Source: an uncultured Bacteroidia bacterium
GTDB taxonomy: Bacteria; Bacteroidota; Bacteroidia; JANWVE01
NCBI GenBank assembly: GCA_938028625.1
Contig: CALIZB010000051.1
Location: 1 to 59,341, forward strand
Direction: 5' to 3'
Length of the DNA: 59,341 nucleotides
Shown here: piece by piece, positions 12,303-45,517 of the stretch
Position numbering within the stretch: position 1 is the first letter of the stretch
Layout of the letters: every line of letters starts with the position of its first letter
Made by a program: the position numbers and the translations under genes
Notes under the pieces: generated by a model
What the model was told of the DNA's origin: nothing
The model's input: the letters and a program-made list of their open reading frames with translations, nothing else
Databases searched by the model: none

Positions 12303-12368
12303 GGTCATTGAGTAGTGATAGCATGGTCATTGAGTAGCGATAGCGTACCGAATTGTACCGAAGTGACC
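12303..12368. repeat. Direct and inverted repeat around GGTCATTGAGTAGYGATAGC
   Basis: GGTCATTGAGTAGYGATAGC occurs at 12303-12322 and 12325-12344 (22-base period). It is followed by two GTACCGAA copies and AAGTGACC, which can pair back with GGTCATT. Degenerate copies of the same core sit in the repeat at 45387-45517 and at 48008-48028. Confidence 0.65.
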
Positions 12369-12467
12369 GTTTCTTATACCATCGTTTTACATAACATCAG
12401 ATTATTAGTACTTTCTATAAATTTTCTTATGATGTTTTTACGCAAAAAACTATACAAAAAACTTGAC

Positions 12468-20046: not shown

Positions 20047-20156
20047 GCGTGAGGCATGCGAAGGGTGTGCGTCAGCATAGTGCGAAACGAAGTGAAGCAC
20101 CGTAGCGATAGCGAAGCCCAAAGCACGCCGACCTGAACGCAGTGAAGGACACGCCC
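20047..20156. repeat. Interspersed GC-rich repeat, copy 1
   Basis: Begins GCGTGAGGCATGCGAAGGG and ends AGGACACGCCC. It lies between the convergent ends of the T9SS gene (20017) and the B12-binding gene (20192). Nearly collinear with the copy at 34537-34639 and, inverted, with 28991-29110. Confidence 0.9.
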
Positions 20157-28990: not shown

Positions 28991-29110
28991 GGGCGTGTCC
29001 CTGCACACGTCTCACTGACGTTCAGGTGTGCAGGGTCGGCGTACTGCGGGCTACGCTAACGCTTCGGTGCTACGCACTATGCTAACGCATACCCTTCGTA
29101 TGCCTCACGC
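28991..29110. repeat. Interspersed GC-rich repeat, copy 2 (inverted)
   Basis: Reverse orientation relative to copies 1 and 3: starts GGGCGTGTCCCTGCACAC and ends GTATGCCTCACGC. It carries an extra inverted repeat CCTGCACAC/GTGTGCAGG not present in the other copies. It occupies most of the 313-base gap 28885-29197, which holds no gene. Confidence 0.9.
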
Positions 29111-34536: not shown

Positions 34537-34639
34537 GCGTGAGGCATGCGAAGGGCAAGCCGTAAGGCTTGGTGCGTAGCACCGCAGCGCTAGCGTAGCC
34601 CGTTAGCACGCCGACCTGAACGCAGTGAAGGGCACGCCC
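34537..34639. repeat. Interspersed GC-rich repeat, copy 3
   Basis: Begins GCGTGAGGCATGCGAAGGGC and ends AGGGCACGCCC; it contains CAAGCCGTAAGGCTTGG, an inner hairpin. Located between convergent gene ends (34517 and 34701). Confidence 0.9.
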
Positions 34640-45386: not shown

Positions 45387-45517
45387 GCGTGAGGGAGGTA
45401 TGCGGAGGGTATGCGTGATTTCGGTACGCTAGTGCTACTACTCAATGACCATACAGCGAAGCCCGTAGCACACCGACCCTGAACCTTGAGCTTGCCGAAG
45501 GGTGAAGAACACGGTCA
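45387..45517. repeat. Interspersed GC-rich repeat, copy 4 (diverged)
   Basis: Shares the GGATTTGCGTGAGG start with copy 3, but the centre carries CTACTCAATGACCAT (reverse complement of the element at 12325) and CCTTGAGCTTGCCGAAGG, a palindromic unit. It lies between convergent gene ends (45351 and 45543). Confidence 0.8.

What the first reader, a model, noticed from the sequence alone, without database searches (positions are those of the whole stretch)
20047..20156. A GC-rich interspersed repeat of 100-130 bp occurs four times, mostly between convergent gene ends
Copies at 20047-20156, 28991-29110 (inverted), 34537-34639 and 45387-45517 share a GCGTGAGGCATGCGAAGGG start and, except the last, an ACGCCGACC... 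CACGCCC end. The surroundings are AT-rich. Three of the four lie exactly between convergent genes and the fourth in a 3'/5' gap. Inner bases change in matched pairs (for example the CAAGCC/GGCTTG hairpin in copy 3 and the CCTGCACAC/GTGTGCAGG stem in copy 2), suggesting selection on structure. Candidates: a REP/BIME-like family, a non-autonomous mobile element, or a bidirectional terminator or RNA-stability element.
Basis: partly seen in the sequence, partly recalled or inferred. Interest (0 to 1): 0.6.

Follow-up and report, generated by a model that had tools for sequence, protein, structure and literature searches.

The report
Multi-hairpin mobile repeat between bacterial genes
The four repeats are copies of a roughly 110-base DNA element that folds into five hairpins, has multiplied to dozens or more than a thousand copies in some bacterial genomes, occurs in at least four phyla, and has no identified enzyme that moves it.

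Summary
The repeat is real. The four window copies belong to a family of 57 in this 2.9 Mb Bacteroidia draft genome. Two same-genus genomes carry far more: 140 matches in 263 kb and 148 in 715 kb, many as head-to-head pairs.

The strand reading GCGTGAGG...CACGCCC forms one conserved fold. A terminal stem closes a three-way junction; one arm carries three hairpins above a GNA/GNA internal loop, the other is a single variable hairpin. Compensatory changes support it strongly: 16/34 pairs in this genome, 27/34 across lineages, 26/32 in Spirochaetota/Fibrobacterota sequences not used in the model (0/500 shuffles each).

Hairpin loops are mostly C(GNA)G or C(GNNA)G with a pyrimidine third base, which fits stable DNA loops better than RNA GNRA loops. 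In this genome 28 of 32 copies between co-directional genes are antisense to them, so read-through mRNA carries the other strand.

Best reading: a non-autonomous element acting as single-stranded DNA, REPIN-like in organisation. The REP partner (Y1 transposase, PF01797) was not found in the richest carriers and shows no association across 296 Spirochaetota genomes. The mover is unknown; mobility and ssDNA were not shown directly. Convergent bias is weak genome-wide; a terminator is not supported.

The parts
20047..20156 (+). copy 1 of the element
   Evidence: 96.6 bits
28991..29110 (-). copy 2; P7 is the long CCCTGCACAC...GTGTGCAGGG stem; P2 has the compensated GGCATAC/GTACGCC change
   Evidence: 113.5 bits
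34537..34639 (+). copy 3, the most compact copy
   Evidence: 98.4 bits
45387..45517 (+). copy 4, degenerate; the P4-P6 region is replaced by a second repeat hairpin
   Evidence: (52.6 bits)
45414..45450 (-). nested second repeat GGTCATTGAGTAG...ACCGAAATCACG inside copy 4
34537..34541 (+). copy 3: P1 5' arm GCGTG, pairs with 34633-34637 CACGC; closes the three-way junction
   Evidence: 4 of 5 pairs with double changes across lineages
34633..34637 (+). copy 3: P1 3' arm CACGC
34543..34549 (+). copy 3: P2 5' arm GGCATGC, pairs with 34606-34612 GCACGCC; position 4 is a conserved non-Watson-Crick pair
34606..34612 (+). copy 3: P2 3' arm GCACGCC
34550..34552 (+). copy 3: 5' side (GAA) of the internal loop between P2 and P3; the 3' side here is the 4-nt GTTA at 34602-34605, usually a 3-nt GNA
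   Evidence: GNA/GNA in 38 of 44 and 11 of 14 three-by-three loops
34553..34555 (+). copy 3: P3 5' arm GGG, pairs with 34599-34601 CCC
34556..34571 (+). copy 3: P4 hairpin CAAGCC-GTAA-GGCTTG
34572..34582 (+). copy 3: P5 hairpin GTGC-GTA-GCAC
34587..34594 (+). copy 3: P6 hairpin GC-GCTA-GC
34615..34631 (+). copy 3: P7 hairpin CCT-GA-AC-GCA-GT-GA-AGG with tandem G.A mismatches; module swapped for longer hairpins in other copies

Best explanation
The copies are non-autonomous extragenic mobile elements whose functional form is the folded single strand of DNA that reads GCGTGAGG...CACGCCC. Shown: the fold (three-way junction of P1, P2-P3 carrying P4/P5/P6, and P7); its compensatory evolution; the strand preference of the loops; the copy numbers; the extragenic location; head-to-head pairing with fixed spacers in two relatives; and distribution over Bacteroidota, Fibrobacterota, Spirochaetota and Gammaproteobacteria. 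Inferred: a trans-acting enzyme recognises the folded strand when it is exposed, for example during replication, cuts at the T|GCGTG and CACGCCC|A ends, and pastes copies into AT-rich intergenic DNA without target-site duplication. The enzyme is not identified. It does not appear to be a Y1/RAYT transposase or a reverse transcriptase in the genomes tested. In the window's species, copies sit just after stop codons, probably because the AT-rich stretch there is the preferred or the tolerated insertion site.
For: Copy number and family. Fold and covariation: 16 pairs with double changes versus 5.6 shuffled; 27 of 34 across lineages; 26 of 32 in Spirochaetota/Fibrobacterota copies not used to build the model. 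Strand and DNA character: 4-nt loops G..A in 74%, 87% and 81% of cases in three genomes, third base mostly pyrimidine, also across phyla; + strand loops fall in the most stable class while the same loops read on the - strand do not. GTGC-GAA-GCAC contains GCGAAGC; that d(GCGAAGC) is the classic very stable DNA mini-hairpin is from my own knowledge (PMC10527192, describes the class of extraordinarily stable mini-hairpins). Antisense to flanking genes 28:4 in G000, so the favoured strand is not the read-through mRNA. Amplification: nearest-neighbour identity 88% in G000 but 95-96% in G001/G002, where copy numbers are far higher; head-to-head pairs with spacers sharply at 336-346 or 109 bp. Empty orthologous site: own C35:631-729 versus a 6-bp gap in G002. 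No target-site duplication. Conserved flanking T (90%) and A (83%).
Against: No mobilising enzyme identified. No transposition event observed; only one clean empty site was found and deletion there is not excluded. Loop chemistry is suggestive, not proof of DNA: the nearest-neighbour energy tables used do not separate GNNA by the third base, and no paper on DNA GNNA loops was retrieved. The + strand is also the better fold under RNA parameters, so an antisense RNA cannot be excluded. The antisense orientation bias is seen only in G000: Fibrobacter 11:10, G002 singles 13:11.
Confidence: 0.55

Rival explanations
1. RNA-level element: a transcription terminator, 3'-UTR stabiliser or small RNA made from the repeat.
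For: In G000 copies lie close behind stop codons and are modestly enriched at convergent ends. REP sequences in other bacteria do affect mRNA stability and termination (PMC6006769).
Against: No U-run follows the fold on either strand. The strand with the favoured loops and G.A motifs is antisense to the genes in 28 of 32 tandem cases. Third loop bases are pyrimidine, unlike GNRA. No Rfam match at gathering threshold. In relatives copies occupy divergent and tandem gaps as well.
Confidence: 0.2
2. Classical REP/REPIN moved by a Y1 (RAYT/TnpA-REP) transposase.
For: Same style: extragenic, high copy, hairpin, head-to-head doublets, no target duplication. Bacteroidetes RAYT subclass 2.6 is reported with atypical flanking structures (PMC6006769).
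Against: PF01797 not found in G000, G001, G002, G049, nor in G062 (116 matches), G238, G264, G348, G075, G185. No association across 296 Spirochaetota genomes: 24/55 carriers versus 94/241 others, p = 0.54. None of 26 Y1-gene loci had a confident element nearby (one weak hit, E 0.04). The unit is 100-130 nt with five hairpins and no GT[AG]G foot.
Confidence: 0.07
3. MITE of a DDE transposon: the head-to-head pairs of G001/G002 would be elements with long terminal inverted repeats (GGGCGTG...CACGCCC) and an AT-rich core, and the singletons of G000 would be relics.
For: Pairs have fixed inner lengths and outward GGG/CCC ends.
Against: No target-site duplication. Single arms are dominant and conserved in G000 and distant lineages. 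Strand-specific loop conservation is not expected for duplex-recognised ends.
Confidence: 0.1
4. A host-maintained site, such as a binding site for a nucleoid protein or gyrase, kept by selection on the chromosome (BIME-like role), whatever its origin.
For: Folds stay intact in diverged copies. Density in G001 is high and about half of the sampled junctions carry a unit.
Against: 57 matches versus several hundred to over a thousand estimated in congeners argues against an essential chromosomal function. Patchy distribution.
Confidence: 0.08

Closest known systems
REP / REPIN / BIME repeats with RAYT (TnpA-REP) transposases
   Same: Extragenic, high copy, palindromic, often inverted doublets, ssDNA hairpins as the presumed functional form
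   Different: Unit 100-130 nt with a three-way junction and five hairpins; head GCGTGAGG instead of a GT[AG]G foot; no Y1 transposase in the richest carriers; conserved across phyla, whereas REPs are described as species-specific in sequence (PMC6006769)
CGTC-tagged REPs (PMC3733652)
   Same: Reported from Bacteroidetes, Spirochaetes and other phyla and without a dedicated transposase
   Different: Described as short palindromes tagged CGTC; the present element is several times longer and its ends are GCGTG/CACGC. The published sequences could not be compared here (supplements not available)
ERIC / RU, BOX and RUP intergenic repeats (PMC2759123 and PMC3049150, seen as abstracts)
   Same: About 100-130 bp, multi-hairpin or modular, intergenic, non-autonomous
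   Different: No sequence relation was tested; those are known from Enterobacteria or pneumococcus
Integron attC sites
   Same: Single-stranded, strand-specific folded recombination site of similar size, including GTT/AAC near the ends in some spirochaete copies
   Different: The end motifs have the opposite polarity, copies are not arrayed in one orientation behind cassettes, and P1 freely covaries (GCGTG, GCGTT, GCGCC, GGCTT). Based on my own knowledge of attC, not on a test here

Membership tests
REP/REPIN-RAYT system | cognate Y1 (PF01797) transposase in the genome, flanked by the repeat | tested here: not met
REP/REPIN-RAYT system | short (21-65 nt) hairpin with 5' GT[AG]G foot | tested here: not met
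   100-130 nt, head GCGTGAGG, multi-hairpin; definition from PMC6006769
REP/REPIN-RAYT system | extragenic, many copies, inverted doublets | tested here: met
MITE of a DDE transposon | target-site duplication | tested here: not met
MITE of a DDE transposon | autonomous partner with the same ends | tested here: inconclusive
   One wide head-to-head interval in G000 read in full holds ordinary genes; neighbours elsewhere are housekeeping genes; whole genomes were not annotated
Intrinsic terminator | GC-rich hairpin followed by a T-run in the transcribed direction | tested here: not met
Retroelement (retron, group II intron, DGR) | reverse transcriptase (PF00078) in carriers | tested here: not met
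   absent in 8 of 9 carriers including G000-G002 and G062
Known Rfam RNA family | match at gathering threshold | tested here: not met
   no match in the window; only chance-level matches in five element loci at E up to 5
CGTC REP | short palindrome tagged CGTC at one end | tested here: inconclusive
Integron attC site | arrayed behind gene cassettes and recombined by an integron integrase | not tested
   No integrase search was made; scattered positions in both orientations speak against it

The most novel reading that the evidence does not exclude
A previously undescribed class of mobile repeat spanning at least four phyla, recognised as a large folded single strand of DNA (three-way junction, GNA/GNA internal loop, cGNNAg hairpins) and moved by an enzyme not yet linked to any known REP, IS200/IS605 or retroelement system.
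Probability: 0.35. Interest if true: 0.8.

Novelty: new variant of a known kind. Interest (0 to 1): 0.62.

Why it matters
If right, an ordinary-looking intergenic repeat is one member of a cross-phylum family that reaches an estimated thousand or more copies in a 2.9 Mb genome. Its fold is strongly constrained while its sequence is not, and it has no known mover. That points to an unrecognised single-strand DNA recombination or transposition activity that can be searched for, and gives a covariance model to annotate such copies, some of which now break assemblies: many sampled contigs of the relatives start or end inside an element.

Tried and rejected
Y1 transposase: not in the richest carriers, no association elsewhere, not flanking.
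Reverse transcriptase.
Recurrent neighbouring gene family: none, neighbours are housekeeping genes.
Target-site duplications: none.
Autonomous version between widely spaced head-to-head copies: the C101 interval in G000 holds ordinary genes.
Orthologous empty/filled sites in bulk: only one empty and one shared site recovered, because held stretches are partial and gene order is not kept at the copies.
Named phages and plasmids with the own element: none. With a spirochaete copy as query: Thiothrix and Methylomagnum plasmids.
Papers holding the sequence: none; other sequence-string searches returned unrelated papers.
Energy tables cannot tell DNA from RNA by the third loop base.
One archaeal hit of the 19-mer (Bathyarchaeota MAG, L128) showed no element.

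Full report
1. Observation. The four window copies are present as described. The 19-base head occurs three times within three mismatches where shuffles give none. Copy 3 as a BLAST query finds 40 places in the window's own draft genome (2,898,206 bases, 170 contigs; the window is contig C51). A covariance model (R1) built from 31 copies finds 57. Full copies run from GCGTGAGG to CACGCCC and are usually 100-130 bases long. All four window copies lie between convergent ORFs. Genome-wide the figures are 19 convergent, 32 tandem and 3 divergent, against 24/66/22 background junctions (one-sided p = 0.045, simple ORF-based gene calls of my own). The convergent bias of the window is therefore mostly local luck on top of a modest preference for gene 3' ends.

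2. Anatomy. On the strand GCGTGAGG...CACGCCC, P1 (GCGTG/CACGC) closes a three-way junction. One arm is P2 (GGCATGC/GCACGCC, with a conserved non-Watson-Crick fourth pair), a three-by-three internal loop, and P3 (GGG/CCC), which holds hairpins P4, P5 and P6. The other arm is P7. Minimum-energy folds of several copies give P1, P2, P3 and P7; in P4-P6 the predicted fold often differs, and there the model rests on covariation. In this genome 16 of 34 pairs have changes on both sides (shuffled mean 5.6, 0 of 500) and sliding the partner destroys pairing. P4 alone occurs as TATGC/GCATA, TGTGC/GCACA, CAAGCC/GGCTTG and CATGC/GCATG. P2 is compensated as GGTGTGT/ACACACC (L008) and GGCATAC/GTACGCC (copy 2). 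P7 exists as a short hairpin with tandem G.A mismatches (CCT-GA-AC-GNA-GT-GA-AGG) and as longer exchangeable hairpins, in many combinations with the P4 types, so copies are mosaics of hairpin modules. About eight copies, including window copy 4, carry another repeat of this genome (GGTCATTGAGTAG...TACCGAAATGACC), inverted, in place of P4-P6.

3. Relatives. Same-genus genomes G001 and G002 are much richer: 140 matches in 263 kb of G001, plus 313 in 501 kb of selected loci, and 74 + 74 matches in 315 + 400 kb of G002. This extrapolates to roughly 1,500 and 600 per genome; part of the stretches was chosen because they hold copies, so these are rough. G001 is SKYG108 (JANWVE01) by matching contig lengths. 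Many copies there form head-to-head pairs with inner lengths sharply at 336-346 or 109 bp, in G002 with two different arm types. After CACGCCC an A4-6 run is nearly invariant in pairs. Nearest copies are 95-96% identical in G001/G002 and 88% in G000, as expected if amplification is more recent in the rich genomes.

4. Breadth. The exact head plus the same architecture occurs in Fibrobacter intestinalis, Fibrobacter MAGs and a Spirochaetes MAG. A Fibrobacter MAG has 116 matches among 150 scored candidates. A cross-lineage model (R2) finds matches at E <= 1e-4 in 31 of 395 Bacteroidia, 55 of 296 Spirochaetota and 11 of 101 Fibrobacterota genomes. These are lower bounds because few candidates per genome were scored. 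Copies lie on Gammaproteobacterial plasmids of Thiothrix and Methylomagnum. Covariation holds in the cross-lineage set (27 of 34 pairs) and in 14 Spirochaetota/Fibrobacterota copies not used in the model (26 of 32); both alignments are fitted to the model, which leans towards it. P1 itself covaries (GCGTG, GCGTT, GCGCC, GGCTT with their complements).

5. Which strand and which nucleic acid. Among four-base loops with stems of four or more pairs, G..A loops make up 74%, 87% and 81% in G000, G001 and G002, mostly GTTA and GTCA. Across phyla the third base of GNNA is pyrimidine in 17 of 20 (P4) and 17 of 23 (P6) in the cross-lineage set, and 6 of 7 (P6) in the independent set. Triloops are mostly GNA, interchangeable with GNNA. 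The internal loop is GNA/GNA in 38 of 44 and 11 of 14, and the junction between P2 and P7 is GA in 42 of 46 and 14 of 14. RNA GNRA loops require a purine at the third place. d(cGNNAg) and d(cGNAg) are known stable DNA loops (my own knowledge of the biophysical literature; not retrieved from the paper library). Read on the opposite strand these loops lose their favourable class. In G000, in tandem junctions, 28 of 32 copies lie antisense to the genes, close behind the stop codon and a T-rich stretch (p = 2e-5), so read-through mRNA would carry the unfavoured strand. This bias is absent in Fibrobacter (11:10) and in G002 singles (13:11); I read it as an insertion-site or tolerance effect of that genome, not as the general rule.

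6. Mechanism. The best-supported reading is a non-autonomous element acting as folded single-stranded DNA, copied into AT-rich intergenic DNA without target-site duplication, with T before the head in 90% and A after CACGCCC in 83%. One orthologous empty site supports gain or loss: own C35:631-729 against a 6-bp gap in G002. At another site both genomes carry a copy. Not shown: a transposition event, the cutting positions, the enzyme, and the single-stranded state in cells.

7. Comparison with known kinds. It works like a REPIN/BIME population but fails the REP membership tests: no PF01797 gene found in the richest carriers, no association in Spirochaetota (24 of 55 versus 94 of 241, p = 0.54), no confident element beside 26 Y1 genes, no GT[AG]G foot, and several times the REP length (definition in PMC6006769). 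PMC6006769 notes atypical structures next to Bacteroidetes RAYT subclass 2.6, and PMC3733652 notes CGTC repeats without a dedicated transposase in Bacteroidetes and Spirochaetes. Neither set of sequences could be compared here, so either could be a partial earlier sighting. It is absent from Rfam at gathering threshold. Reverse transcriptases are missing from nearly all carriers tested.

8. Verdict. The terminator idea is not supported, the convergent bias is weak, and the mobile-element idea is the most likely.

Noticed in passing
window 12303-12376 and 45414-45450; loci L030:2689, L043:1315, L205:1038, L215:1917: A second small repeat family, GGTCATTGAGTAG-(often GATA-loop hairpin)-GTACCGAAATGACC, occurs alone and nested in inverted orientation inside about eight copies of the main element.
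   Followed up: partly
G001 (SKYG108) loci L222-L241: The AT-rich core of about 340 bp between paired arms contains repeated ACCTTGTTT...ACAAGGT motifs; its role is unknown.
   Followed up: no
L366 (IMGVR_UViG_3300028735_000371): A 9.2 kb contig classed as viral carries five copies, four of them in two head-to-head pairs with spacers of about 25-30 bp. It may be a misclassified chromosomal contig.
   Followed up: no
L333 (Fibrobacter MAG G062, C95:78500-88119): At least four copies in the same orientation spaced about 0.8-2.1 kb, most followed by CGTAAG or similar, suggesting a longer repeated unit there.
   Followed up: no
conserved gene junctions of G001 versus G002: All 39 junctions with conserved gene order between the two genomes lacked the element, although it sits in about half of the sampled G001 junctions: copies lie where gene order is not kept.
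   Followed up: partly
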